Shown here: piece after piece, positions 22,781-35,083 of the stretch
How positions within the stretch are numbered: the first letter of the stretch is position 1
Layout of the letters: each line of letters opens with the position of its first letter
NCBI RefSeq assembly: GCF_000374165.1
Contig: NZ_KB893728.1
Coordinates: 62,001-126,000, forward strand
Source of the DNA: Parafrankia elaeagni
Lineage (GTDB): Bacteria > Actinomycetota > Actinomycetes > Frankiales > Frankiaceae
DNA length: 64,000 bases
Direction: 5' to 3'
The notes under the pieces: model-generated
Told to the model about the DNA's origin: nothing
Databases searched by the model: none
What the model saw: the letters and a program-made list of their open reading frames with translations, nothing else
Made by a program: the position numbers and the translations under genes

Positions 22781-24340
22781 TCAGGGGCTGATCAGCGGTC
22801 TGAAGGCGGCCTGGATGTCCGGGCCGGAGGGGGTGACGTAGCGCTCCGTGTCATAGCCGAAGAGCGTGAAGGGACAGCTCGAGCCGTTGATCTCCACCCT
22901 GGTATCGGTCAGCAGCGCTCCGGTCCGCAGGTCGTGGACGCGGACGGGCAGCGCCACCCGATGGAACGTCACGTTCCCGCCGGGGTTGTAACGGCAGGTC
23001 TCGACCGCCGAGCCCAGCTCGTCATCACCGACGCAGAGGACCCGGGTGGCGGCGGTCAGGTCGCCGGCCTTCCACTCGCCGGGCAGATCGTCCACGTAGG
23101 TGGAGGCGCCGAAGACCAGGGCCCGGTTCGGGCCGCTGGACGCCTGTGAGAAGGGGACCGGGGCGGTGCAGTACTGCGGCAGGGTGCCGGCCGCCGGGGC
23201 GCGCAGCAGGTCGCGCAGGTTCGTGACCTCCGCCTCCCGGCCGATCCGCGCGAGGCCGTCCCGTGCCCGTGGGGCGAGCGCGTCGCCGGGGTACCGGTCG
23301 AGCAGCTGCTGGAAGGTGGCCTGGGCCCCGTTCGGATTCCCGGCGTCGAGAAGCTTGTCACCGCAGCCGACCAGCGCCGCGGGCGCGAGCCGGGGCACGG
23401 CCTCGGCAGCGCGGTCGAGATCGTTACCGCTGGCCGGCCGCTCGGTGAGCCAGGTGGTGATCGTGGCGGTGTCGCAGGGATCCTTGGCCGGTAGGCCGCC
23501 GAGGAACCGGTCGAGGACCGCCCGCACCGCGCGCTCATGGCCGGGCAGGTCTGCGAGGACGGTCGACAGTGCCCGGAACCCGCTCTCCAGCTCCGTCGTG
23601 TCGCCGCCCAGGGCGTTGGCGAGGTCGTCGCCGGCTGTCCGCAGCTGCGCGCAGGCCTCGACCGTGCGCTCGCCGTCCGCTGCCGGGGAGATCGTGACCA
23701 TCCGGTGGGCGGGGGTCACCCGGTCCACGGCGGCCTCTGCCCGCGAGCAGTCGCCCGCGATGCGCGCCGCGGTGACGTCCTTCTCGATCTTCCCGGTGTC
23801 GAGCCGGAGGAACACGAACGCCAGCAGCACCGGGAGCACGGAGACGAGGGCGAGCGACCGGCGCACCCACGACCGGCGCACCCACGACCGGCGCACCCAC
23901 GACCGGCGCACCCACGACCGGCGCACCCACGACCGGCGCACCCACGACCGGCGGACCGGCGCTCCGGGGGGCCCGGTCCCACGCGGTCCGGTCCCGCGGT
24001 GGCATGGCCACCCGCCAGCCAGACACCAGCCGTGCGCTACCAGGAGCGCCCACCACGCCAGCACGATGACGGCGAACCACAGCACCTGCGCGGACGAGGC
24101 GAAGATGATGAGCAGCTCGGCGGTGATCAACACGGAGACCAGGGCGAGATGGACCCGCCCCAGCATCAGGTACCCGACGCCGAGCAGGGAGGCGTTGCCC
24201 AGCGCCACCGCCAGTGGATCGTGGGACCGCTCCGCGTCCCCGGCCCGTCCCGGTCCTGCCGTCGCGTCCGGCCTGGCCGTCGTGTCCGGCGGTGGCTGCG
24301 ACGCCGGGTGTGGCCCGGGCCGCGACTCGGCCTGCGTCAT
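22781..24340 (-). CDS. Membrane protein with WVRRS repeats and TPR-like region, last gene of the Hsp70 operon
   Basis: A 519-residue protein of no family I recognise. After a disordered tail (1-45) come two hydrophobic segments (about 50-105), then an Arg-rich loop holding six tandem VRRSW units, a third hydrophobic segment (LALVSVLPVLLAFVFL) and a long outer or inner domain. That domain contains a TPR-like piece (NPNGAQATFQQLLDRYPGDALAPRARDG split over two helices) and a Cys-containing C-terminal beta-rich region. It starts 12 bases after the TPR/OmpA gene and so shares its transcript. A membrane-anchored partner of the chaperone is inferred from context only. Confidence 0.75.
   Translation of the reverse strand: MTQAESRPGPHPASQPPPDTTARPDATAGPGRAGDAERSHDPLAVALGNASLLGVGYLMLGRVHLALVSVLITAELLIIFASSAQVLWFAVIVLAWWALLVAHGWCLAGGWPCHRGTGPRGTGPPGAPVRRSWVRRSWVRRSWVRRSWVRRSWVRRSWVRRSLALVSVLPVLLAFVFLRLDTGKIEKDVTAARIAGDCSRAEAAVDRVTPAHRMVTISPAADGERTVEACAQLRTAGDDLANALGGDTTELESGFRALSTVLADLPGHERAVRAVLDRFLGGLPAKDPCDTATITTWLTERPASGNDLDRAAEAVPRLAPAALVGCGDKLLDAGNPNGAQATFQQLLDRYPGDALAPRARDGLARIGREAEVTNLRDLLRAPAAGTLPQYCTAPVPFSQASSGPNRALVFGASTYVDDLPGEWKAGDLTAATRVLCVGDDELGSAVETCRYNPGGNVTFHRVALPVRVHDLRTGALLTDTRVEINGSSCPFTLFGYDTERYVTPSGPDIQAAFRPLISP
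23856..23953. repeat. 15-base minisatellite, 6 full copies plus a partial
   Basis: GACCGGCGCACCCAC is repeated head to tail at 23856, 23871, 23886, 23901, 23916 and 23931, with a partial seventh. All full copies are identical, indicating recent expansion. On the coding (minus) strand each unit encodes Val-Arg-Arg-Ser-Trp, forming a dense positive patch just before a membrane segment. Confidence 0.95.
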
Positions 24341-24352
24341 CGGAGGTTCCTC

Positions 24353-25327
24353 TCAGCCGGGCGGCGTGATGCGCAGGGTCACGGTGCGGTTGCGGATGCC
24401 GTCGGCGGGGGAGTCGGGGTAGGGCGCGACGGCGCTGCCGGCCGCCGCGACCGTGAGAGCGGCCGCGGGGACGCCGGCCGCGCGCAGGACCTGCGCGGCG
24501 GCGGCGGCGCGGGCCAGGCTCAGCGTGGTGTTGTCGGTGAACGGCCCGCCCGGTCCGACCGGGACGCTGTCGCTGTGGCCGACGATCTCGGCGGCGACGC
24601 CCGGGATGGCCGCCAGCCGGCCGCCCGCCGCGGCGAGCGCCGCGCGGCCCTGCGGGCTCAGGGTGTCGCGGCTGGCGAAGACGGCCTCGCGAAAGACGGC
24701 GACCACCTGGTCACCGGCCCTGGCGAGCGTCACCTCCGGCCCGGCGAGGCGCGCCGCCAGGTCCGCCCCGCGGGAGGCCGGCGCGGCGGTCACACTCCCG
24801 GCAACGGCGGGAGCTGCCGTGGCGGTCGCGGACGCCGAGGTGGCGCTGGCTGGTTCGTCCTGGTCGTGACCGAGCCACCAGCCTCCGCCGAACGCGATGG
24901 CGAGGGCGAGGGCAGCTGCCACGGTCACGCCTCCCCGGACCCGGCCGCCGCCGCGGCGGGTGCGCAGCTGGTCGAGGCGGCGCAGGCCCGCCGTCGCCCC
25001 GGCCGCCGTCGGGTCGAGGGCGAGCACGGCCCGCCAGTGCCGCTCCGCCTCGTCGAACCGGCCCTGCTGTGCCCGGATCCGGGCCAGCAGGTCGTGCTCG
25101 ACGGCGGTGTGGTCCCGTCCGTCCGCCAGCGCGCCGAGCAGGCGCAGGCCGTCCTCGTACCGTCCCGCGCGGGCGAGCCTGGCCGCCCGCCCACGGACGG
25201 CCTCGCCGAGCAGCGCGGCCTCGCCGAGCAGCGCGGCCTCGCCCAGCGGCGCGGCCTCGCCGAGCAGCGCGGGCGGGCCGTTGCCCGTGGGGCCGGCGCC
25301 ACTCTCAGCGCTGGGGCTTGTAGACAC
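24353..25327 (-). CDS. TPR/membrane/OmpA-like protein
   Basis: A 324-residue protein with three parts. Residues 1-110 are helical, with Leu-Gly-Glu-Ala-Ala repeats and a TPR-like stretch (GRFDEAERHWRAVLALDP). One membrane segment (about 132-152) follows, flanked by RTRRGGGR. The outer part (about 205-324) matches an OmpA-like peptidoglycan-binding fold: EIVGHSDSVPVG, DNTTLSLARAAAAAQVL and the closing GIRNRTVTLRI with the Asp and Arg used to bind diaminopimelate. It would link the cytoplasm to the cell wall. It overlaps the Hsp70 gene by 23 bases, so translation is coupled. Confidence 0.8.
   Translation of the reverse strand: MSTSPSAESGAGPTGNGPPALLGEAAPLGEAALLGEAALLGEAVRGRAARLARAGRYEDGLRLLGALADGRDHTAVEHDLLARIRAQQGRFDEAERHWRAVLALDPTAAGATAGLRRLDQLRTRRGGGRVRGGVTVAAALALAIAFGGGWWLGHDQDEPASATSASATATAAPAVAGSVTAAPASRGADLAARLAGPEVTLARAGDQVVAVFREAVFASRDTLSPQGRAALAAAGGRLAAIPGVAAEIVGHSDSVPVGPGGPFTDNTTLSLARAAAAAQVLRAAGVPAAALTVAAAGSAVAPYPDSPADGIRNRTVTLRITPPG
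25201..25272. repeat. 18-base tandem repeat, 4 copies
   Basis: CCTCGCCGAGCAGCGCGG is repeated at 25201, 25219, 25237 (two changes) and 25255. It lies within the TPR/OmpA gene and encodes Leu-Leu-Gly-Glu-Ala-Ala repeats near its N-terminus. Confidence 0.9.
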
Positions 25328-27809
25328 CGCTGACGTCCTCCCCGCCGTCCGGCCCGGCGCCGCGCGGGAGCAGCTCGATGAGCTCGCGGTTCACCGACCG
25401 CAGCGCCTCGATGTCGTTGCCGTCGACGGCGCGCCGGCCCTTCGCGATCAGTCGCGCGGCCGCGGCCTGGTCGGTCAGCTCGTCACGCATGCCGGTGAGC
25501 TGGGAGAAGCGGGCCATCACCACCGCCCCTGTTCTGCGGTCGACCACGGTGGCGAGGTAGGCGGCCAGCTGGTCCACCAGGGTCCGCAGATGCTCGGCAT
25601 CCCGGCTCTCCAGGGCACGGCGGACGTCGGCGGCGAGCAGTTCGTAGCGCCGTCGGTCCCGCGGCTCGCCGTACTCGTCGATCAGACCCGGCGCGTCGCG
25701 CAGCACCCGGTTCGCCCACTCGACCAGCGACGGCCACTCCAGCGCCTGCTCGACGGCGTCGAGCCTGGCCTGCAGGTCCAGCAGGCGCCTGCCGGCGGTG
25801 CCGGCCGCGTCGGTGTCTCCGTGCTCGGTCGCGGCGACGTCGTTCTCCAGCTGGTCGACCACCCGCTCGCCGTCCAGCTCGTCGAGGATCGCGAGCGCGG
25901 CCGGGTCGGCGGTGCGCCGCGCGTCCGTCTGCAGGCCGTCCAGCCGCTCCTGCTCGGTCCGCAGCGCCCGGCGAAGCTCGGCCGGCTCCGGGGCGCGCTC
26001 GGTGGTCAGGTCGTGGAAGGCCTCGAACTCCTCGTCGAGGACCGGCACGTACGCCCGCGTGGTGACCAGTCGGGAGGCGTCGATCTGGATCTCCACCTCG
26101 ATCTCGCTGTTCTTCGGGATGTCCCGGGTGACCTGGTCGGCGAGGATCTCCAGCGCGCCCACCTGCCGGTTGCGGCTGGCCCGGGCGTGCTCGCCCTCCA
26201 CGATCGGGATCCGCAGCAGGCCGCCGGACTCGCCACGGGTCAGCCGCACGGTGCTGCGCAGGATCTCGCGGGCCTTCTCCGGGATGCGGGTTCCCTTCGT
26301 CAGCAGCCAGGAGACCTCGTTGCCGGCCAGCGTGACGCCGATCGAGTGGGTCAGGGTCGCGGCCGGTGCGACGACCCCGACGGTGTACGTCAGCTCCTCG
26401 GGCTGGACCTTCTCCCGGGCCCCGGTCGGCCCCTCCAGGACGATCTCGTAGACGTTGCGTCGCTCGGGCTCGGCCCGCAGCGTGGTGATGAACGTCCCGG
26501 CCGCCGGCAGGACGACCTTCCCACTGCGCCACGGCGGCCGGGCCCCGGCGTTGACGAACTCGACGGTGAAACCGTCCAGCACCCGCCCGGCCGGGCCCCG
26601 CACCACCCCGCCGACCACCGGTTCCGGATCGGAGCCGATCGGCTTGTACTCCAGGTCCACCGTGTAGGAGACGTCCGGGCGGACCGGCTCCGCGGGCAGG
26701 CGCTGGGTCCCCGCGAAGATCGCCGCACCGCGGGCGACGACCGTCATCGGGTCCTGGCTGACGTCCAGCTCGATGCCGAGGCCCTCGTGTAGCCGGCGGC
26801 GCAGGTAGGGCGTGAGGGTCGGGCCGCCGACGAGCAGCACCCGGTCGATCCGGTCCGGCGTCAGCTGGCTCTCCCGCAGCGCGGCCTGGCAGATGTTGAC
26901 CGCCCGGGCGACGAACGGTTCGGTCAGGGCGTCGACGTCCGCGCTGTGCAGCTCGTGGACGAACTCCACCGGGGCGCCGCGGGAGTCGGCGCACAGTGGC
27001 GGGTCGCTGATGTCGACCAGCGCCGAGTCCGCCGAGGACAGCTCGATCTTCGCGTTCTCCGCGGCCGCCTTCAGCTTCGCGATCGCCTGCGCCCAGGTCG
27101 GCTCACCCCGCCCGAAGCCGGGCAGGGTGTACTGCCGCAGCAGCGCGGGGATCAGCAACTGCTCGACGATCGCCCAGTCGATGAGCTTCCCGCCCAGGAA
27201 GTTGTCGCCGCGGTGGTTGACGATGTCGAACTCGCCGTCGCGGACGTGCACGACCGAGGCGTCGAACGTGCCGCCGCCAAGGTCGAAGACGAGCCGGTAG
27301 ATGTTGTCCTCGTCGCGCTGGAAGCTGTAGGCGAGGGCAGCCGCGGTCGGCTCCTGCAGCAACGGGGAGAGCTCCAGCCCGGCGGCCTCGGCGGCCCGCC
27401 GCGTCGCGTCGGTCTGGTTCAGCTCGAACGCGGCCGGCACCGTGATGACGGCGGCCCGGACCTCCTCGCCCAGCTGCCTGGTCACGTTCGCCTTGAGCGC
27501 GCGCAGCACGTGGGCGGACAGATCCTCCGGGCCCAGCTTCAGGCCGCTGTTGGCGAAGGATGTCAGCTGGTCGCGCAGGCCCATCCTGAGCTTGAACTCG
27601 GCGGCGGCGTTCGCCGGGTCGGACTCGACCCGTTCGCGGGCGCGTTCGCCGACATGAATCCGCCCGGCGCGGTCGGCGTACACGGCCGACGGCGTGGTGT
27701 CGTGCCCGAAGGCGTTCTTGACGATGCGGGCCTCGGTGCCGTCCAGGACGGCGATCGCACTGTTGGTCGTCCCCAGATCGATGCCGAAGTCCATCGTTGA
27801 TCGCGCCAT
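25305..27809 (-). CDS. Hsp70-family ATPase chaperone (non-DnaK type)
   Basis: An 834-residue protein, longer than DnaK (about 620). The ATPase domain (1-385) is intact: FGIDLGTTNSAIAVLDG (phosphate 1), AVITVPAAFELNQTDATRRA, DLGGGTFDASVVHV (phosphate 2) and RVLLVGGPTLTPYLRRRL (adenosine). A beta-rich substrate-binding-like part follows (to about 600), then a long charged helical tail (600-834) unlike the DnaK lid. Two adjacent ATGs (27812, 27809) follow AGGAGG; 27809 gives the better spacing, and an ATG at 27794 begins MDFGIDLG. It sits after the GrpE-like gene and overlaps the OmpA-like gene. A role as an ATP-driven switch within this operon's complex is inferred. Confidence 0.9.
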   Translation of the reverse strand: MARSTMDFGIDLGTTNSAIAVLDGTEARIVKNAFGHDTTPSAVYADRAGRIHVGERARERVESDPANAAAEFKLRMGLRDQLTSFANSGLKLGPEDLSAHVLRALKANVTRQLGEEVRAAVITVPAAFELNQTDATRRAAEAAGLELSPLLQEPTAAALAYSFQRDEDNIYRLVFDLGGGTFDASVVHVRDGEFDIVNHRGDNFLGGKLIDWAIVEQLLIPALLRQYTLPGFGRGEPTWAQAIAKLKAAAENAKIELSSADSALVDISDPPLCADSRGAPVEFVHELHSADVDALTEPFVARAVNICQAALRESQLTPDRIDRVLLVGGPTLTPYLRRRLHEGLGIELDVSQDPMTVVARGAAIFAGTQRLPAEPVRPDVSYTVDLEYKPIGSDPEPVVGGVVRGPAGRVLDGFTVEFVNAGARPPWRSGKVVLPAAGTFITTLRAEPERRNVYEIVLEGPTGAREKVQPEELTYTVGVVAPAATLTHSIGVTLAGNEVSWLLTKGTRIPEKAREILRSTVRLTRGESGGLLRIPIVEGEHARASRNRQVGALEILADQVTRDIPKNSEIEVEIQIDASRLVTTRAYVPVLDEEFEAFHDLTTERAPEPAELRRALRTEQERLDGLQTDARRTADPAALAILDELDGERVVDQLENDVAATEHGDTDAAGTAGRRLLDLQARLDAVEQALEWPSLVEWANRVLRDAPGLIDEYGEPRDRRRYELLAADVRRALESRDAEHLRTLVDQLAAYLATVVDRRTGAVVMARFSQLTGMRDELTDQAAAARLIAKGRRAVDGNDIEALRSVNRELIELLPRGAGPDGGEDVSGVYKPQR

Positions 27810-27840
27810 CATGCCTCCTGGCCGGTGAAAGGGGGATGGG

Positions 27841-28527
27841 TCAGCCGCCGCCGTCGCGGGCGGCGGTGTCGGGCGGGGCAGTGTCGGGCGGAGCGGTGTC
27901 GCGTGAGGCGGTCTCGCGTGAGGCGGTGTCGGGCGGGGCGGTGCCGGGCGGGGCGGGAATGCCGACCACGACCTCACCGGTCTGCACCCGCTGGCCGTGT
28001 AGGTAGACGCTCGGCCGCAGGGTCTCCAGGACGATCTCGCCGCTCAGGCCGGCGGTCTGCTGGAACTCGAGAACCTGCAGGTCGAGGCCGGAGTCGTAGC
28101 GGGTGCGGTCGTGCTCCTGGATCTCGACCCCGGCCGCGGTGAGGGTGCCCCACAGGGAGTCGAGCTGGCGCTGCAGGCGGCGGGTGTCCGCCGGGCCGGC
28201 GGGCTTCGTCCGATCGGTGCCGCCGGCCAGGTCGGACAGGCGCCGGCGCAGCCGCCAGAGGCCGGTCGCGAGCTCGGCGACCACCGGCTGCCCGAGCGCC
28301 CGCGCTGTGGCGCCCGTAGCGCCCGTGGCGTCGGGTGCCGTCGTCGAAGTGGGCCCGGAGGCATCCGCGGTTCGGGTGGCCGAGGAGGCCAGCCGCAGTG
28401 CCTCGGCCCATTCCGCGGGCAGTGCCGGTCGGGCTATGCGGAACTCGCGGGGATGGCGCCACTGGCGCAGGCCCTCAACCACCGGTGACACCGAGCGGTC
28501 GTTCGCCTCGCTGCCAGCCCTTGCCAC
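27841..28527 (-). CDS. GrpE-like nucleotide exchange factor
   Basis: About 228 residues. The C-terminal half follows the GrpE pattern: an helix pair (LATGLWRLRRRLSDL; LQRQLDSLWGTL), then AAGVEIQEHDRTRYDSG, LSGEIVLETLRPSVYLHG and QRVQTGEVVVG, corresponding to GrpE's 'GVe', fDp and 'GY-l-gR-l-pA-VvV' segments. Directly upstream of Hsp70, it is the expected exchange factor. Its long N-terminal coiled coil is replaced by an Ala/Thr-rich stretch. The start is uncertain: GTG 28527, or GTGs at 28491/28482; all overlap the preceding gene. The C-terminus is a tandem-repeat tail (Asp-Thr-Ala-Pro-Pro type). Assignment is from pattern, not from close identity. Confidence 0.7.
   Translation of the reverse strand: MARAGSEANDRSVSPVVEGLRQWRHPREFRIARPALPAEWAEALRLASSATRTADASGPTSTTAPDATGATGATARALGQPVVAELATGLWRLRRRLSDLAGGTDRTKPAGPADTRRLQRQLDSLWGTLTAAGVEIQEHDRTRYDSGLDLQVLEFQQTAGLSGEIVLETLRPSVYLHGQRVQTGEVVVGIPAPPGTAPPDTASRETASRDTAPPDTAPPDTAARDGGG
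27866..27955. repeat. 15-base tandem repeat, 6 copies, in the GrpE-like gene
   Basis: Six consecutive 15-base units related to GTGTCGGGCGGGGCG fill the end of the GrpE-like gene. On the coding strand they encode Asp-Thr-Ala-Pro-Pro and Glu/Asp-Thr-Ala-Ser-Arg units, a flexible Pro-rich tail. Confidence 0.9.
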
Positions 28528-30079
28528 GCAGGTCCGCCAATGGTGGGAAGGAATCGATGCGCGCCCGCTCCCGTCGCGCGGCGGGCCAGCTCACGGCCAT
28601 CCCGTCGACGAGGAAGGCGATGACCGCGGCGAGAACGCCGAGCGCGACGAAGCCGCCGCCAGCGCCGGGGAACAGCATCGAGGGAACGCTGATCGCCACG
28701 AGGAAGTACAGGACGGTACGCAGGGCCATCCGCCAGCCGCCGCTCGCCCTGCGCAGCTCGCAGGTACGGCAGCGCGGCACGGTGATCTCACCCTTGCTCC
28801 ACTGCACGCCCTGGAAGGTCCGAACCACCTCGCCGTGCATCCAGACCCTGACTCCCGAGCGTTCCTCGGCCGGCCGGTCCCGGCAGACCCAGCAGACGAT
28901 GTGCAGAGCGGACGACTCGAGAAGCGCCCGGTTCTCGGCCAGCCGCTCGCGGATGGCCTCGGAGCCCGCCGTGCGCTCGGCCCGCGTCAGCAGCTCGGTC
29001 ATCGTGAGGTGATCGCGGGCGGCGTTGTCTCCCGCGGCGCGGGGCACGCCCCTGGTCCGGTCGAAGGCCAGCAGGCAGTGCAGCGTCTCGAGGGCGACCT
29101 TGTCGTGCGCGCGGACCCGCGTCGGCTCCTCGGCGGGCAGCAGGACGTCGATCCGTTCCAGCAGCTCCGCGGACTCGGTGAGGATCCGCTCGGCCTGGGC
29201 CAGGCCGTCCGTCGAGGTGTTCTCGGCGATCCGGACGGCGCTGTCACACAGGGTCGTGACCTCGTTCGCCCAGGGGGTGCCCGCCGTGCGCAGTGCGGCC
29301 CCGAGGGCCTCGTCGGCGGTGGGCCCCAGCCGCGCCGCCCGCATCGCCGCCAGCTGTCGCTCGGCCCGTCCGAGGTCGCCCGCGGTGAGGGCCGCGACGG
29401 CGAGCTCGGCGCCGATCGCGAGCAGCGCGGTCGGCAGCGCCGCCCGGACGTCGGCGGCCAGGCTCTCGTCGAGCCGGGCGTTGCCGGCCTGCCGGATGCG
29501 CGCCGCGAGACCCTCCCAGACCCGATCGTCGTCCAGGACGTTCTCCCAGCGGCGATGGACCGAGAGCCAGTCAGGGGGCGGACCACTCGTGTCGGTGGCG
29601 GCCTGCTCGGCGTCCAGGGCCTGCAGGTGCTCGAGCACCGCGAGGTTGTGGACGGCACTCGCGGCCTCCGCGGACGCTTCCGGATCGGTTCGGGCCGCTG
29701 CCGTGCTCCAGTGCCGCACCGCGGACGCCGTGTCGCCGGTGGCCAGGGCGGCGAGCGTCGGGTCCGGCTCGCCACCCGTGCCGCTGGTGGCGACTGGCCA
29801 GAACCAGAAGAACTCGTCGACCAGCCGCTGGCGGGGGTCCCCCAGCCGGTCGAGGGCACCGCGGAGGTCCTGGGCGGACGGCGCCGGCCGCAGCGGCAGG
29901 ACGTCCGACACCGGCAGCTCGCCGCCGGTCTTCTCGATCACGGCGAGCATGTCGGACTTCCGCCTGATGTCCCGCCCGGTCGCCGCCAGGGGCAGGCCGG
30001 TCACGCGGAAGGCGTTCTGCCGGTAGAGCCGTGGCGACAGTCGCCCGAGGAGACCGGAGTCGGTGTGCCGGGTCGTCAT
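28475..30079 (-). CDS. J-domain-like, zinc-ribbon membrane protein
   Basis: A 534-residue protein. The N-terminus (RQNAFRVTGLPLAATGRDI, then RRKSDMLAVIEK and ALDRLGDPRQRLVDEFFWF) follows the helix pattern of J-domains, including the helix IV 'L-DP--R--D' motif, but the HPD tripeptide that stimulates Hsp70 is absent. A long helical middle (about 100-385) resembles TPR-like repeats. Near the C-terminus two CxxC pairs (CWVC and CRTC, 45 residues apart) form a likely zinc ribbon, followed by two membrane segments. ATG 30079 overlaps the kinase stop as ATGA. Its position between a kinase and GrpE-like/Hsp70 genes supports a co-chaperone role. The family is not one I can name. Confidence 0.7.
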   Translation of the reverse strand: MTTRHTDSGLLGRLSPRLYRQNAFRVTGLPLAATGRDIRRKSDMLAVIEKTGGELPVSDVLPLRPAPSAQDLRGALDRLGDPRQRLVDEFFWFWPVATSGTGGEPDPTLAALATGDTASAVRHWSTAAARTDPEASAEAASAVHNLAVLEHLQALDAEQAATDTSGPPPDWLSVHRRWENVLDDDRVWEGLAARIRQAGNARLDESLAADVRAALPTALLAIGAELAVAALTAGDLGRAERQLAAMRAARLGPTADEALGAALRTAGTPWANEVTTLCDSAVRIAENTSTDGLAQAERILTESAELLERIDVLLPAEEPTRVRAHDKVALETLHCLLAFDRTRGVPRAAGDNAARDHLTMTELLTRAERTAGSEAIRERLAENRALLESSALHIVCWVCRDRPAEERSGVRVWMHGEVVRTFQGVQWSKGEITVPRCRTCELRRASGGWRMALRTVLYFLVAISVPSMLFPGAGGGFVALGVLAAVIAFLVDGMAVSWPAARRERARIDSFPPLADLRGKGWQRGERPLGVTGG

Positions 30080-31269
30080 CTCGCCACCCCCCTGCGCCAC
30101 AGCCGGATCCGGGACGCATGCTGTTCACGCAGATCAGGCCAGGCGGCGCAGGCCTCCTCCATCAGATCGGCGGCGTGGCCGTACCGGCCGGCGGCAGCGG
30201 CGGCCACCGCCCGGGCAGCCAGCCGCTCCGCCGCAGCCTGCCCGTCGGCCGCTGCCCGGTCCGCGGGTAACGCGCGCTGGTCCGCGGGTAACGCGCGGCG
30301 CTCCGGCGGCGCCTGGCCGCCGGGCGAGGCCCGGCCGAACGTCTGCTTGCCTGCGGCGATCTCCTCTGCCGGCACGGGTTCCCGCAGCGGCCGACGGGCC
30401 GCGGCCGGGGTGTCCGGCCGCCACGCCTCCAGCTCGGTGAGCAGCTGCGCGGCCGACGGGTAGCGCTTCGCCATGTCGAAGGACAGCGCCCGGGCGACGA
30501 TGCCGTCCAGTACCGGGTCCACCGCGTGCCGCACCTCGCTCGGCGGCACGAGCGCCGATCGGTGCCACGACGCCGCGACCGGGTCGCCGGCGCCGCGCTG
30601 CGGATAGGGGACCTGGTCGGTCAGCAGCAGGTAGAACACGACACCCAGCGACCAGACGTCCGCCGGCATCGATGACAGGTGTGGGTGGAGCAGGGTCTCC
30701 GGTGCCATGAAGGCAATCGACCCCTGGGAGCTCGCCAGCAGGGTCAGGGCGCTGACCTTCCTGGCGAGGCCGAAATCGCTGACCCGCACCCGCAGGCCGG
30801 CCCCGTCATAACCGACCAGGATGTTCTGCGGAGTGATGTCACGGTGGACGATCGGCGGGGACTCCTGGTGCGCCACGGCCAGACCGCGTGCCGCCTGGCG
30901 GATGACGTCAACCGCTGTCGGGACGGGCACGTACCCCTCGCCCTGCGAGCGCCAGAAGTCGTGCAGCGTACCGCCGGCGACGTATTCCATGGTGAAGTAG
31001 GCGTGAACGCCGCCGGACGTCTCGACGGTGTTGGCCTCGAACACCCGGACGATGTTCGGGTGTGCTATGCCGGAGAGCAGCATCGCCTCGCCGAGCGCGT
31101 CATGCACCTGTTCTGTGGACATTCCCGCCTGCCGGAAGACCTTCATCGCCTGCCGCTTCCTCAGATATCGGTGCCTGACCCGGTACACCTCCGCGAACGC
31201 ACCGGCGCCGAGTAGTCGCTCCACCGTGTAGGTGTCACGGACGACCTGCCCGTCGCGTAACAGAGCCAT
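30076..31269 (-). CDS. Serine/threonine protein kinase (soluble), first gene of the Hsp70 operon
   Basis: A 397-residue Hanks-type kinase. Glycine loop LGAGAFAEVY, ATP-binding Lys43 (QAMKVF), catalytic HRDITPQN, DFGLARK and the activation-segment APE (FMAPETLLHP) are all present, so it should be active. A proline- and Arg-rich linker follows the kinase domain, with a short helical repeat (AAAAAGRYGHAADLMEEACA) at the C-terminus. Unlike PknB it has no membrane segment or PASTA domains. It heads the six-gene operon, overlapping the J-like gene by 4 bases, so it may phosphorylate a chaperone component. Confidence 0.9.
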   Translation of the reverse strand: MALLRDGQVVRDTYTVERLLGAGAFAEVYRVRHRYLRKRQAMKVFRQAGMSTEQVHDALGEAMLLSGIAHPNIVRVFEANTVETSGGVHAYFTMEYVAGGTLHDFWRSQGEGYVPVPTAVDVIRQAARGLAVAHQESPPIVHRDITPQNILVGYDGAGLRVRVSDFGLARKVSALTLLASSQGSIAFMAPETLLHPHLSSMPADVWSLGVVFYLLLTDQVPYPQRGAGDPVAASWHRSALVPPSEVRHAVDPVLDGIVARALSFDMAKRYPSAAQLLTELEAWRPDTPAAARRPLREPVPAEEIAAGKQTFGRASPGGQAPPERRALPADQRALPADRAAADGQAAAERLAARAVAAAAAGRYGHAADLMEEACAAWPDLREQHASRIRLWRRGVAR

Positions 31270-31778: not shown

Positions 31779-33605
31779 GTGATCGTCGACCGGTCGCGGG
31801 TGGCCGCGGCCGTGCCGAACTACGTGCTGGGTGAACAGCTCGGCTCGGGGGCGTTCGGCCTGGTGCTGCGGGCCGAGCACCGCCGGATGCGCCGCCCGGC
31901 GGCGATCAAGGTGATGCCGGCCGAGGGCGCGCGGATAGACTTCGCCGCCGAGGCGCGGCTGCTCGCGGGGCTGGACCATCCGCACGTCGTCCGGGTGTAC
32001 GACTACATCGAGGCCGACGATCTGTGTCTGGTCGTGATGGAGCTGCTCGCCGGCGGCACGCTGACCCGGCGGCGGGCCACGCTGAGCGCTGGGCAGACCT
32101 GCGCGGTGGGCCTCGCGGTGGCCGCGGCGCTGGGCCACGCCCACGACCGCGGGGTGCTGCACCGCGATGTCAAGGCCGACAACATCCTGTTCGCCGCGGA
32201 CGGGACGGTGAAGGTCGGCGACTTCGGGATCGCGAAACTGTTCGAAGGGTCGGCGGCCACCGTCAGCAAGGTCGTCGGCACGCCGATCTACATGGCGCCG
32301 GAGCAGATCGACGTGGGCGGCCGGCTCGGACCGGCAACCGACCTGTACGCCCTCAGCGCCGTTCTCTACACCCTGCTGGCCGGCCGGCCCCCGTTCGACC
32401 CGAAGCAGCCCCTGCACCTGCTGTGGCACCAGCTGCGCAACGAGCCCGCCCCGCCGATGGACGGAGTGCCGGGCTCCGTCGCCCAGGTGGTGCTGCGCGG
32501 GCTCGAGAAGGACCCGGCGGCCCGCCACCCGGACCCGGCGGGGTTCGCTCTGGACCTCGCCGGCGCCGCGGCGGAGGCCTATGGTGTCGACTGGATCGCC
32601 CGCACCGGCATGCCGCTGCATCTCGACGACGCCGTCCGCCGTGCCGCCGTCCGCCCTGTCACTGTCCGCCGTGCCGCTGTCCGGTCACCGGCCGATGCGG
32701 TGACGGAACTCGTCCAGGACATCGTCGCGGAGGGGCCGACTGCGCGCCCCGACGGGCTGCCCGCATTCACCGGCCCGGCCCCGGGCAGCGCCGGATCCAC
32801 ATCGGGCACGGCGGTCACAGCCAGCGCCGACACCACCGAGGGCCGGTACGCGGGCACCGTCGGCGCGGAGGAGTTCGCCCGACTGCGGCACGCCCACGGC
32901 GCCGACCATCACACCACCCTGGCTGCGGCGAACGAGCTCGCTCTGCGGCTGAGCGCCCTCGGGCGGCACGAGGAAGCCCGCGAACTCGACGAGGACGTGC
33001 TCGGACGGCTGCATCGTCAGCTGGGGCCCGACCATCCGGACACGCTCACCTCCGCCCACAACCTCGCGGTCGACCTGACTGCGCTCGGTGCGGCCAGCCG
33101 CGCCCGTGACCTGTGTCAGGACACGCTCCGGCGGCGCCGGAGCGTCCTCGGGCCCGACCACCCGGACACCCTCGACACGGCGCACAATCTCGGCATGCTG
33201 TGCAGCGCCGGCGGCGAGCACGGGGCGGCGCGTGAGCTGGGGGAGGACACTCTGGCCCGGCGCCGGCGGGTGCTGGGGCCCGACCATCCCGAGACCCTGA
33301 CCGCCGCCTTCAACCTGGCCGCGCGGCTGGGCGCCCTCGGCGAGTTCGAGGCGGCGCGCGAGCTGGGGGAGGACACTCTGGCCCGGCGCCGGCGGATGCT
33401 GGGGCCCGACCATCCCGAGACACTGGTCAGCGCCTTCAACGTCGCCTTCTACCTCGGCCGTCTCGGCCGCTACCTGGACGCCGGCGACCTCTGCGCGGAC
33501 ATCCAGGAGAGCCGTGGCCGGAGCCTCGGCCCGGGCCACCCCGACACCCTCGCCGCCGAGGATGCCGTCGCCTGGTGGTTCCACCAGGCCGGGCGTGACC
33601 TTTAG
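31779..33605 (+). CDS. Serine/threonine kinase with tetratricopeptide C-terminus
   Basis: A 608-residue protein. The kinase domain (about 12-270) has LGSGAFGLVL, Lys44 (AAIKVMP), HRDVKADN, DFGIAKL and MAPEQ. After a linker rich in Ala, Thr and Pro, residues 365-600 form about five 42-residue TPR units of the kinesin-light-chain type, each with the LGPDHPDTL signature. Two neighbouring units are nearly identical at DNA level (around 33231-33299 and 33357-33425), indicating recent duplication. GTG 31779 has GGGAG 6 bases upstream. It is divergent from the chaperone operon; TPR domains often bind chaperone C-termini, but that link is inferred. Confidence 0.9.
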   Translation: MIVDRSRVAAAVPNYVLGEQLGSGAFGLVLRAEHRRMRRPAAIKVMPAEGARIDFAAEARLLAGLDHPHVVRVYDYIEADDLCLVVMELLAGGTLTRRRATLSAGQTCAVGLAVAAALGHAHDRGVLHRDVKADNILFAADGTVKVGDFGIAKLFEGSAATVSKVVGTPIYMAPEQIDVGGRLGPATDLYALSAVLYTLLAGRPPFDPKQPLHLLWHQLRNEPAPPMDGVPGSVAQVVLRGLEKDPAARHPDPAGFALDLAGAAAEAYGVDWIARTGMPLHLDDAVRRAAVRPVTVRRAAVRSPADAVTELVQDIVAEGPTARPDGLPAFTGPAPGSAGSTSGTAVTASADTTEGRYAGTVGAEEFARLRHAHGADHHTTLAAANELALRLSALGRHEEARELDEDVLGRLHRQLGPDHPDTLTSAHNLAVDLTALGAASRARDLCQDTLRRRRSVLGPDHPDTLDTAHNLGMLCSAGGEHGAARELGEDTLARRRRVLGPDHPETLTAAFNLAARLGALGEFEAARELGEDTLARRRRMLGPDHPETLVSAFNVAFYLGRLGRYLDAGDLCADIQESRGRSLGPGHPDTLAAEDAVAWWFHQAGRDL

Positions 33606-33961
33606 CCGCCTTTGGATCCGATGGCGGCCACAGCCGTCGGCGCGGTTTGTTGCTGCCACCGAACGGCGGCCTTGTGCGCATAGATCGGCGCCTTTTGTTC
33701 TGGCTGGACGAGCAGTTCTCGCCGCCGTTAGGCTCGCTCTGCTGGTGGGCGTATAAGGGTCATGTGGGTGACGGCGGATTCTGTCGTGCGTCGGCTCGGA
33801 CAACTCGGAGAGCACGAGCCGCGGGCGGTTCTCCGTCATTGGCCTGATTCGTTCTGTCCAGCGGGTCGTCCGTCGTGGCCCGCCCTGCCGGCGGCAGGGC
33901 GGCACGGCGGCTGACTCCGTCACGTCTTCGTAGATACTCGGGAAAAATTCGGGGGTTTCTG
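33606..33961. other. Intergenic region with hairpins
   Basis: No gene seen. A short inverted repeat (CCGCC/GGCGG around 33607-33628) directly after the kinase stop may act as a terminator. A 10-base perfect stem (33880-33889 with 33893-33902, 3-base loop) lies about 60 bases before the next gene and overlaps the alternative upstream start of that gene, which argues against it. Confidence 0.45.
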
Positions 33962-35083
33962 GTGGAGCTTGTGTCGACGTACTCACACCTGAGTGACCGG
34001 CTTTTCGCCGAGCAGATCATGGAATCGATCAGGGAACGGCACGGGGTCGACCTGCGGGCGATCTTCGCGAATGACGCGCTGAGTGAGAGGAAGAAGGCCC
34101 GGATCGCGCGGGTACGGCTCCTGGAGGCACTCCTGGAGGAGGTGGGCCGGCCGGGCTCCGGCGCGACGGGCCTCGAGGCCACCGACTTCGACCAGGACAC
34201 CGCTCTCGAGAGGATGCTGGACACCGAGGTTGACATCGAGCCGAACCTCTCGATGACGCGCAGCGACGCGAACTTCGTCATGGGTCTGCGGGGTGACGAC
34301 GTCAGGCAGTATCTCAGCTCGCTCACGAAGCGCTTCGAGAACATGCAGAACGCCAAGACCCCGGGCCAGCTCGCGATGGAACTGGTTGCTGGCGGCCTGA
34401 TCAGCGTGGGCGTCCCGATGGCGGTCGAGACGATCAAGGCGCTGCGTGCCGGGCAGGCCCTGCTCACCGCAATCCGCACCGGTATCACCAGCATCGGCCT
34501 CAAGACCGCGATCGGTGCTGTCGTCGTGGTTCTCGTCGGATTCCTGCTGTACCTGTTCCTCGAAAACCCGAAGAAGATTCTCGGAATGGTCATCAACGAC
34601 ACCGACGAGCACCTTGTCGTCAAGGAGTGGGAGAAGGGGGTGGATGGAAAGAAGGCCGGCGACCTGTATATGGCCTTCGGGCACATGGCCTCCTTCATGC
34701 AGGACAACGAGGGAGGGCTTGTCTCGCCGAAGGTCCAGGTCAGGGCGCGCGTCAACTTCGGGCCGAGCGACCCGGAGAACCTCGTGTTCGCCGGAATCTA
34801 CTTCGCCGACCGGAACTTCGGGATGCGCGGCGCCGAGGGGGTCATGATCTTCAGCTCGCCGAAGATCCGGTTCGCGCACCTCTTCGCCGTCCCGTACTTC
34901 GAGGACAACGGTACGTACATCGGGTTCGTCACCGAGGGCGAGGACATCGAGAAGATCTACAATGACTTCTACGGGAAGCGGCAGGTCTCCGTCTCCTACA
35001 CCGAGAGGAACTACCGGCTCGCCGCGAATGTCAACGCGCCCAGAGGCGGTGTTGTGGCCTGTATCGCCTCCATCGTCCAGTGA
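33962..35083 (+). CDS. Unrecognised membrane protein, 373 residues
   Basis: I do not recognise the family. Residues 1-110 are helical and charged (LSDRLFAEQIMESIRERHG). Two hydrophobic stretches follow, about 137-160 (LVAGGLISVGVPMAVE) and 177-200 (AIGAVVVVLVGFLLYLFL). The C-terminal 170 residues look like a compact beta-rich domain (MVINDTDEHLVVKEW, NFGPSDPENLVFAGIYFADR, FAVPYFEDNGTYIGF). Such a helical hairpin plus beta domain could be a pore-forming or membrane-anchored effector, but this is speculation. GTG 33962 has GGGGG 6 bases upstream; the longer frame from 33875 passes through a hairpin. It lies downstream of the kinase-TPR gene on the same strand. Confidence 0.75.
   Translation: MELVSTYSHLSDRLFAEQIMESIRERHGVDLRAIFANDALSERKKARIARVRLLEALLEEVGRPGSGATGLEATDFDQDTALERMLDTEVDIEPNLSMTRSDANFVMGLRGDDVRQYLSSLTKRFENMQNAKTPGQLAMELVAGGLISVGVPMAVETIKALRAGQALLTAIRTGITSIGLKTAIGAVVVVLVGFLLYLFLENPKKILGMVINDTDEHLVVKEWEKGVDGKKAGDLYMAFGHMASFMQDNEGGLVSPKVQVRARVNFGPSDPENLVFAGIYFADRNFGMRGAEGVMIFSSPKIRFAHLFAVPYFEDNGTYIGFVTEGEDIEKIYNDFYGKRQVSVSYTERNYRLAANVNAPRGGVVACIASIVQ

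What the first reader, a model, noticed from the sequence alone, without database searches (positions are those of the whole stretch)
22781..31269. Six-gene operon joining a Ser/Thr kinase, J-like, GrpE-like and Hsp70 proteins to two membrane proteins
Seen: the kinase and J-like genes overlap by ATGA; the J-like and GrpE-like genes overlap; Hsp70 follows after 31 bases; the OmpA-like gene overlaps Hsp70; the last gene follows after 12 bases. Known: Hsp70 needs a J-protein and an exchange factor. Here both appear to be divergent, dedicated versions, combined with a kinase and a protein that spans the membrane and may hold peptidoglycan. Inference: a membrane-tethered chaperone machine controlled by phosphorylation. 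I know of no described system with exactly this set.
Basis: partly seen in the sequence, partly recalled or inferred. Interest (0 to 1): 0.8.

Follow-up and report, generated by a model that had tools for sequence, protein, structure and literature searches.

The report
Wall-tethered dedicated Hsp70 system
A soil and plant-associated actinobacterium carries what looks like its own private Hsp70 chaperone kit, encoded together with a membrane protein that may grip the cell wall and with a protein kinase, and the contact that normally switches Hsp70 on appears to have been lost.

Summary
The six-gene operon is real and its core is an evolutionary unit. K (kinase), J, G, H (Hsp70) and O (TPR-membrane-OmpA) are neighbours in the ten Frankiaceae genomes that have it (in one the locus is split over two contigs); J and K-specific matches are missing from the other 26 of 36 genomes of the order. 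Fourteen further genomes in two other families also carry it: J+G+H in 24 of 24, O in 20 of 24, K in 11 of 24, in rearranged orders, such as G-H-O-J in ten and J-FHA/HTH-PP2C-K-G-H in one. So H, J, G and usually O form the core; kinase and L are variable. G is a diverged GrpE (profile match far above 200 shuffles). J aligns along the J-domain more weakly and lacks HPD in 24 of 24. H has Pro instead of the Arg (R167 in DnaK) that HPD contacts in 24 of 24. Best reading: a dedicated, membrane- and wall-tethered Hsp70 cycle, kinase-controlled in some lineages, with non-canonical J action. Function is inferred. Closest precedent: HSP70/GrpE/DnaJ themes of GAP1-N2 systems (PMC7159879).

The parts
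30076..31269 (-). K: Ser/Thr protein kinase (397 aa) with a TPR-like C-terminal tail (tail judged by eye)
   Evidence: PF00069 E 2.6e-43; catalytic Lys, HRD, DFG, APE kept in the 10 aligned sequences; K profile at >=574 bits in the 10 genomes of the order that have J, next best listed match 139 bits
28475..30079 (-). J: J-like domain without HPD, helical-looking middle, two CxxC pairs, two hydrophobic C-terminal segments (534 aa)
   Evidence: No Pfam hit; conserved in 24 loci; profile alignment to DnaJ J-domains score 25.9 against a maximum of 15.4 in 200 shuffles; hydropathy, which also flags 213-231
27841..28482 (-). G: diverged GrpE (213 aa from GTG 28482)
   Evidence: Profile alignment to GrpE prob 94.9, score 48.9 against 23.8 maximum in 200 shuffles, 48.6 against 21.0 without the doubtful row L041; PDB profile search lists GrpE 4ani first, E 0.022
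25305..27812 (-). H: Hsp70 (835 aa) with about 95 extra residues between NBD and SBD-beta and a long C-terminal region
   Evidence: PF00012 E 2.2e-76; alignment to DnaK 2v7y and 2kho; R167 equivalent is Pro150
24353..25327 (-). O: TPR - hydrophobic segment - OmpA-type domain (324 aa)
   Evidence: TPR_2 E 3.2e-6, OmpA E 4.6e-6; hydrophobic segment 130-148, a second marginal one at 283-301; GH(S/T)D...R(A/T) pattern in 19 of 20 copies (GQSD in two of them), the 20th cut by a contig end
22781..24340 (-). L: membrane protein with weak TPR-like stretch and conserved Cys-containing C-terminus (519 aa); lineage-specific
   Evidence: Present in six Parafrankia-group genomes, not found in three Pseudofrankia loci, contig ends in G008; hydropathy
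31779..33605 (+). K2: divergent neighbour, Ser/Thr kinase with a TPR array (608 aa)
   Evidence: PF00069 E 6.2e-45, TPR_10/TPR_12; beside K in the Frankiaceae loci, only a 55-aa match in L036

Best explanation
A dedicated Hsp70 cycle held at the cell envelope. H is the ATPase and substrate binder. G is its private nucleotide exchange factor. J, anchored by C-terminal membrane segments, recruits H through its J-like domain and helical region; because HPD and the Hsp70 arginine that HPD normally contacts are both gone, J more likely positions H or stimulates it by another contact than by the canonical HPD switch. O crosses the membrane: TPR inside, where it can dock the complex, and an OmpA-type domain outside that can hold diaminopimelate-containing peptidoglycan. 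In Frankiaceae and one other genus kinase K sets the activity of this machine (substrates unknown; J, O and H are candidates), with FHA-HTH regulators in some loci reading out the phosphorylation. Shown by sequence: gene linkage, families, motif losses, domain layout. Inferred: complex formation, location, phosphorylation, and the role (envelope quality control or stress sensing).
For: J, G and H are together in 24 of 24 loci and O in 20 of 24, across three taxonomic families and in five gene orders, with differing neighbours among the f17 loci. K at >=574 bits is in the same 10 of 36 genomes of the order that carry J, next best 139 bits; all ten also have H. The same K subfamily sits between PP2C and G in G840. 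Pairwise distances of H, J, G, O and K correlate (r 0.92-0.97; 0 of 999 permutations reach r in each of 10 comparisons; shared host descent would also give this). G aligns to GrpE and J to DnaJ above all shuffles and above seven other alignments each. O keeps the pattern with the Asp and Arg of the peptidoglycan site (roles of D271/R286 from passages of PMC6572160; their equivalence here is by pattern and recall). HPD is absent from the J-like domain in 24 of 24, against present in 21 of 21 DnaJ controls; the R167 equivalent is Pro in 24 of 24 H and Arg in both DnaKs of the genome that sit beside grpE and dnaJ. D35 of HPD bonds to R167 (passages of PMC8215388; also PMC7289447). In G840 the J-like domain is fused to a Septum_form domain, an envelope hint.
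Against: No protein contact, location or activity is shown. The J match is modest (prob 54; DnaJ 1bqz only E 0.95 in the PDB profile search, below repetitive designed armadillo proteins), and full-length profiles score poorly (J against DnaJ prob 0.6, G against GrpE prob 12.5). Single G members hardly match the GrpE model of Pfam (2 of 10, best E 0.0052; 4 of 10 touch PG_binding_1, best E 0.057). The AlphaFold2 model of G is poor (mean pLDDT 47.1) and J could not be folded. K is missing from 13 of 24 loci and O from 4 of 24, so neither kinase nor wall anchor is indispensable. G840's J has no CxxC pair. Loss of the R167-type Arg is not special to H: 5 of 5 other divergent Hsp70-like proteins examined in this genome also lack it. 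The FHA-like gene was not found in the window's genome (one search had no positive control). G017 of the same genus lacks the system, so it is dispensable.
Confidence: 0.5

Rival explanations
1. A biological conflict (anti-phage or self/non-self) system: the Hsp70 trio acts as an ATP-driven threshold switch for an effector, as proposed for the HSP70/GrpE/DnaJ themes of GAP1-N2 systems.
For: GAP1-N2 neighbourhoods in actinobacteria and firmicutes are described with HSP70, GrpE and a DnaJ-fused protein, and another theme there with kinase and PP2C (passages of PMC7159879). Patchy distribution inside a genus. A distant Pseudofrankia locus combines kinase-WD40, a ClpN/AAA_2 protein, a protein with the middle region of J, a GrpE-like protein and Hsp70 (L041).
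Against: No GTPase, tubulin, vWA or recognisable effector among the eight local proteins scanned. The PADLOC hits shown are generic kinases and ZorB/MotB-like OmpA domains. In ten genomes the unit is G-H-O-J with no shared further gene found next to it in all of them.
Confidence: 0.25
2. A membrane import, export or assembly motor: H pulls or folds a specific exported or membrane-inserted client at a site fixed by J and O, as the mitochondrial import motor does.
For: The parts list resembles a membrane-bound Hsp70 with an exchange factor and a J-like protein without HPD (J-like Magmas/Pam16; listing of PMC8605242, the rest recalled).
Against: No translocon gene or conserved client was seen to be linked; neighbours vary between the f17 loci, though most of those neighbours were not identified.
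Confidence: 0.15
3. A mere operon of convenience: unrelated regulator, chaperone and membrane genes co-transcribed without forming a machine.
For: K is linked to the trio in only 11 of 24 loci and L in six.
Against: Rearranged orders with retained adjacency, and all-or-none co-occurrence of K and J in 36 genomes.
Confidence: 0.1

Closest known systems
GAP1-N2 GTPase-centric conflict systems, HSP70/GrpE/DnaJ theme (Kaur et al. 2020, PMC7159879; passages read)
   Same: HSP70 with GrpE and a DnaJ-domain or TPR partner in one neighbourhood; actinobacteria; a sister theme with kinase and PP2C, the kinase sometimes with TM helices
   Different: No GTPase, FNIII or vWA found here; J-like domain lacks HPD; an OmpA-type wall anchor is part of most loci
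DnaK-DnaJ-GrpE machine
   Same: ATPase motifs of H, GrpE-type G, J-domain-like layout of J, adjacency of the genes
   Different: HPD lost, R167 position Pro, DVLLLD linker altered, about 95 residues inserted before SBD-beta, long C-terminal region, membrane-anchored J
Mitochondrial presequence import motor (mtHsp70, Mge1, Pam18, Pam16) (recalled; PMC8605242 seen in a listing only)
   Same: Membrane-tethered Hsp70 with exchange factor and an HPD-less J-like protein
   Different: No HPD-bearing J partner is encoded in the operon, no translocon seen; analogy of working, not membership
OmpA/Pal/MotB-type peptidoglycan anchors
   Same: GH(S/T)D...R(A/T)...RTV pattern with the presumed binding Asp and Arg
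   Different: N-terminal TPR and a single clear hydrophobic segment instead of a barrel or lipoprotein
PknB-type Ser/Thr kinases
   Same: Kinase domain with catalytic motifs (NF033483 partial match)
   Different: No hydrophobic segment or PASTA hit; far below the family cut-off (181.9 of 450 bits)

Membership tests
GrpE | Recognised by the curated family model | tested here: not met
   Pfam GrpE matched 2 of 10 members only, best E 0.0052; the window member not at all
GrpE | C-terminal beta-wing region homologous to GrpE (AAGVE...YD.G...ETLRP.VYL..R..Q.GEVVV) | tested here: met
   Profile-profile prob 94.9, score 48.9; best of 200 shuffles 23.8; without row L041 48.6 against 21.0; other alignments <=15.9; PDB search GrpE first, E 0.022; full-length profile only prob 12.5
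GrpE | Fold and exchange activity on its Hsp70 | tested here: inconclusive
   AlphaFold2 model pLDDT 47.1, helices then strands; fold search not run because the machine was busy; activity not testable
J-domain protein (DnaJ) | HPD motif | tested here: not met
   Absent in 24 of 24 J-like domains (21 rows and all 10 rows of A1, seven of them shared); present in 21 of 21 DnaJ controls
J-domain protein (DnaJ) | Sequence similarity along helices I-III | tested here: met
   Score 25.9 over the domain; best of 200 shuffles 15.4; other alignments <=19.3. Weak in the PDB search (1bqz E 0.95) and with the full-length profile (prob 0.6)
Hsp70 | Actin-like NBD with phosphate motifs, plus SBD-beta | tested here: met
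   PF00012 E 2.2e-76; DnaK alignment of NBD and SBD-beta; strict patterns for GIDLGTTNS and QEP(T/I)AA in 24 of 24, VGG(P/A)T in 23, D(L/F)GGGTFDA in 20
Hsp70 | R167-type arginine and DVLLLD linker for J-controlled allostery | tested here: not met
   Pro in 24 of 24; linker replaced by a YTVDLEY-like stretch in the 13 aligned
OmpA-type peptidoglycan-binding protein | Binding Asp and Arg of the OmpA domain | tested here: met
   Pattern in 19 of 20 (the 20th ends at the contig edge); roles from PMC6572160; the residue equivalence is by pattern and recall; binding not tested
GAP1-N2 system | GTPase gene in the neighbourhood | tested here: not met
   No GTPase domain in the eight window proteins scanned; GAP1 itself was not searched for by a model of its own, nor the wider window

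The most novel reading that the evidence does not exclude
A membrane- and wall-tethered Hsp70 machine in which the HPD-arginine trigger has been abandoned on both sides and replaced by another, possibly phosphorylation- or tension-dependent, way of switching the ATPase: a kinase or the state of the cell wall, not a classic J-domain, tells this Hsp70 when to act.
Probability: 0.25. Interest if true: 0.85.

Novelty: new variant of a known kind. Interest (0 to 1): 0.62.

Why it matters
In the textbook cycle an Hsp70 is driven by the HPD of a J-protein acting on one arginine. A conserved Hsp70 with its own GrpE and a J-like partner, in which both halves of that contact are missing, gives a natural test of what J-domains do besides the HPD switch. 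If the OmpA-type anchor and the kinase act as their families suggest, bacteria would be tying chaperone action to the state of the cell wall, which can be tested directly with purified parts.

Tried and rejected
Pfam, NCBIfam and PADLOC on the eight local proteins gave nothing for J and G. A J-core profile in 396 phylum genomes gave five weak extra hits (E 1.2e-4 to 9.9e-4); several of their frames look like unrelated proteins by eye (a DapA-, a SecF-like one), so they were rejected. G077 (E 5.9e-4, a stop inside) was rejected likewise. A plasmid search with J found nothing. I first took the FHA genes of Parafrankia and G840 for one family; BLASTP gives E 0.19, so they look like separate recruitments. 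I first thought the linker wholly lost; the alignment leaves room for a changed linker (YTVDLEY), so the arginine loss is the firm point. D481 was dropped as evidence because the genome's own DnaK has Asn there. Control sets for the profile tests: 23 of 30 DnaJ loci and 17 of 20 GrpE loci were taken; L075, L086 (DnaJ) and L104 (GrpE) were dropped as misread, leaving 21 and 16. The G core profile included one row, L041, assigned by eye; leaving it out changes little. The hydropathy row J_L127 was misframed and is not used.
Full report
WHAT IS THERE. The window lies in a Frankiaceae genome (G000:C59; the named relatives found are Parafrankia soli, Frankia sp. EI5c, Parafrankia sp. EUN1f and two Pseudofrankia). 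A further conserved gene, K2 (kinase plus TPR, 31779-33605 +), is divergent from K. In five Parafrankia-group genomes (L032, L033, L034, L035, L036) an FHA-like HTH gene lies between K and K2; it was not found in the window or elsewhere in its genome. Its Pfam matches are below cut-off (FHA in 3 of 4 copies scanned at E<=1, best 0.0054; not in a fifth at E<=0.05), so 'FHA' there rests partly on motif.

IDENTITIES. K is a Ser/Thr kinase with intact motifs. H is an Hsp70: NBD and SBD-beta align with DnaK, with about 95 residues inserted between them and a long C-terminal region. O is TPR, hydrophobic segment, OmpA-type domain. L has several hydrophobic segments and no family. J and G match no family. 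Profile comparison was therefore made with J-domains and GrpE from 13 genomes. G against GrpE: prob 94.9, score 48.9, best of 200 column shuffles 23.8, other alignments at most 15.9; without the by-eye row L041 48.6 against 21.0. J against DnaJ: prob 54, score 25.9, best of 200 shuffles 15.4, other alignments at most 19.3. Smaller versions gave scores of 23.8 and 23.6 for J and 43.2 and 46.6 for G; J's margin was narrow then (best of 100 shuffles 19.1). Full-length profiles gave only prob 0.6 for J and 12.5 for G. In the PDB profile search G lists GrpE first (E 0.022), whereas J brings up repetitive armadillo designs and DnaJ only at E 0.95. The structure model of G is of low confidence (pLDDT 47.1), though its order of elements, helices then strands, is that expected of GrpE.

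THE MISSING SWITCH. In canonical machines Asp35 of HPD bonds to R167 of DnaK (passages of PMC8215388; PMC7289447). None of the 24 J-like domains has HPD, while 21 of 21 DnaJ controls do. All 24 H sequences have Pro at the R167 position (13, 11), while both DnaKs of the genome that lie beside grpE and dnaJ have Arg. A control lowers the weight: 5 of 5 other divergent Hsp70-like proteins examined in this genome also lack the Arg (Asp or Ala; further matches listed were not examined). So loss of the Arg is common among divergent Hsp70s; what stands out here is that a J-like protein without HPD goes with it.

DISTRIBUTION. J: 10 of 36 genomes of the order. K profile at 574 bits or more: the same 10 of 36, next best 139 bits. 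H C-terminal profile at E<=1e-10: 13 of 394 in a class sample, 1 of 396 in a phylum sample, the own genome, 12 of 229 in the order of G714, 2 of 5 in the order of G086; samples overlap, and only 4-7 candidates per genome were scored, so these are lower bounds. Outside this phylum nothing was searched except plasmids with J (no match) and the genome collection, which was scanned with the window's H only and gave five close relatives. Taken together 24 genomes: 10 Frankiaceae, 2 of genus g49, 12 of family f17.

ARCHITECTURE. J, G, H: 24 of 24. O: 20 of 24, missing from G714, G840, G116 and G086 (for G086 the downstream side was seen on a second contig). K: 11 of 24. Orders: K-J-G-H-O(-L) in Frankiaceae (split over two contigs in G021; O cut by the contig end in G008); J-G-H in g49; G-H-O-J in ten f17 genomes, with differing surroundings; G-H-J in G714; J(Septum_form)-FHA/HTH-PP2C-K-G-H in G840. 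L is in six Parafrankia-group genomes, not found in three Pseudofrankia loci, undecided in G008. Distances of the five proteins correlate strongly (r 0.92-0.97), as expected for a unit inherited together; shared ancestry of the hosts contributes to this.

HOW IT MAY WORK. Shown: linkage, families, motif states, hydrophobic segments, and the wall-site pattern of O (19 of 20 copies, one cut short; roles from passages of PMC6572160). Inferred: H cycles at the membrane, G exchanges its nucleotide, J recruits it, O ties it to peptidoglycan, and K (with FHA or PP2C partners in some genomes) tunes it. The client is unknown. I put 0.5 on this, 0.25 on a conflict system, 0.15 on a transport or assembly motor and 0.1 on loose co-transcription.

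KNOWN OR NEW. The nearest described thing seen is the HSP70/GrpE/DnaJ theme among GAP1-N2 neighbourhoods and a neighbouring theme with kinase and PP2C (passages of PMC7159879). The passages name GTPase and GAP1 components, and no OmpA anchor for that theme (OmpA is named for iSTAND systems). Among the titles listed (10 of 534; 10 of 15; 1 of 1; none found) no other paper looked to describe such a set; (10 of 22) listed mainly eukaryotic or organellar cases. Most subscription papers are not held, so this is no proof of absence. I call it a new variant of a known kind.

Noticed in passing
window 23855-23957, 25198-25272, 27862-27956, 30258-30297: In-frame tandem repeats (15, 18, 15 and 21 bases) inside L, O, G and K of this operon. 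In the alignments the units are not shared by the relatives (in O some relatives have other short repeats at that spot), so four of six genes carry expansions private to this genome.
   Followed up: partly
L041 (G028:C68:122000-140000): A distant Pseudofrankia locus: kinase-TPR-WD40 protein, ClpN/AAA_2 protein, a protein with the middle region of J, a GrpE-like protein (by eye) and an Hsp70, in one direction; looks like a larger relative of conflict-type chaperone systems.
   Followed up: partly
L153 (G840:C11:60001-80000): J-like domain fused to a Septum_form domain, followed by FHA-HTH, PP2C, kinase K, GrpE-like and Hsp70: kinase, phosphatase and presumed phosphopeptide reader around the chaperone trio.
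   Followed up: yes
window 33875-35083 (+): A 402-aa protein with two hydrophobic segments downstream of K2, without family match above cut-off and without a match in the 14 relative loci searched.
   Followed up: no
L036:6262-6432: K2 is reduced to a 55-aa tblastn match in L036 (Frankia sp. EI5c), although the K-to-L operon is kept.
   Followed up: no
G000: The genome has 18 matches to Hsp70; five divergent Hsp70-like proteins examined lack the R167-type arginine.
   Followed up: partly
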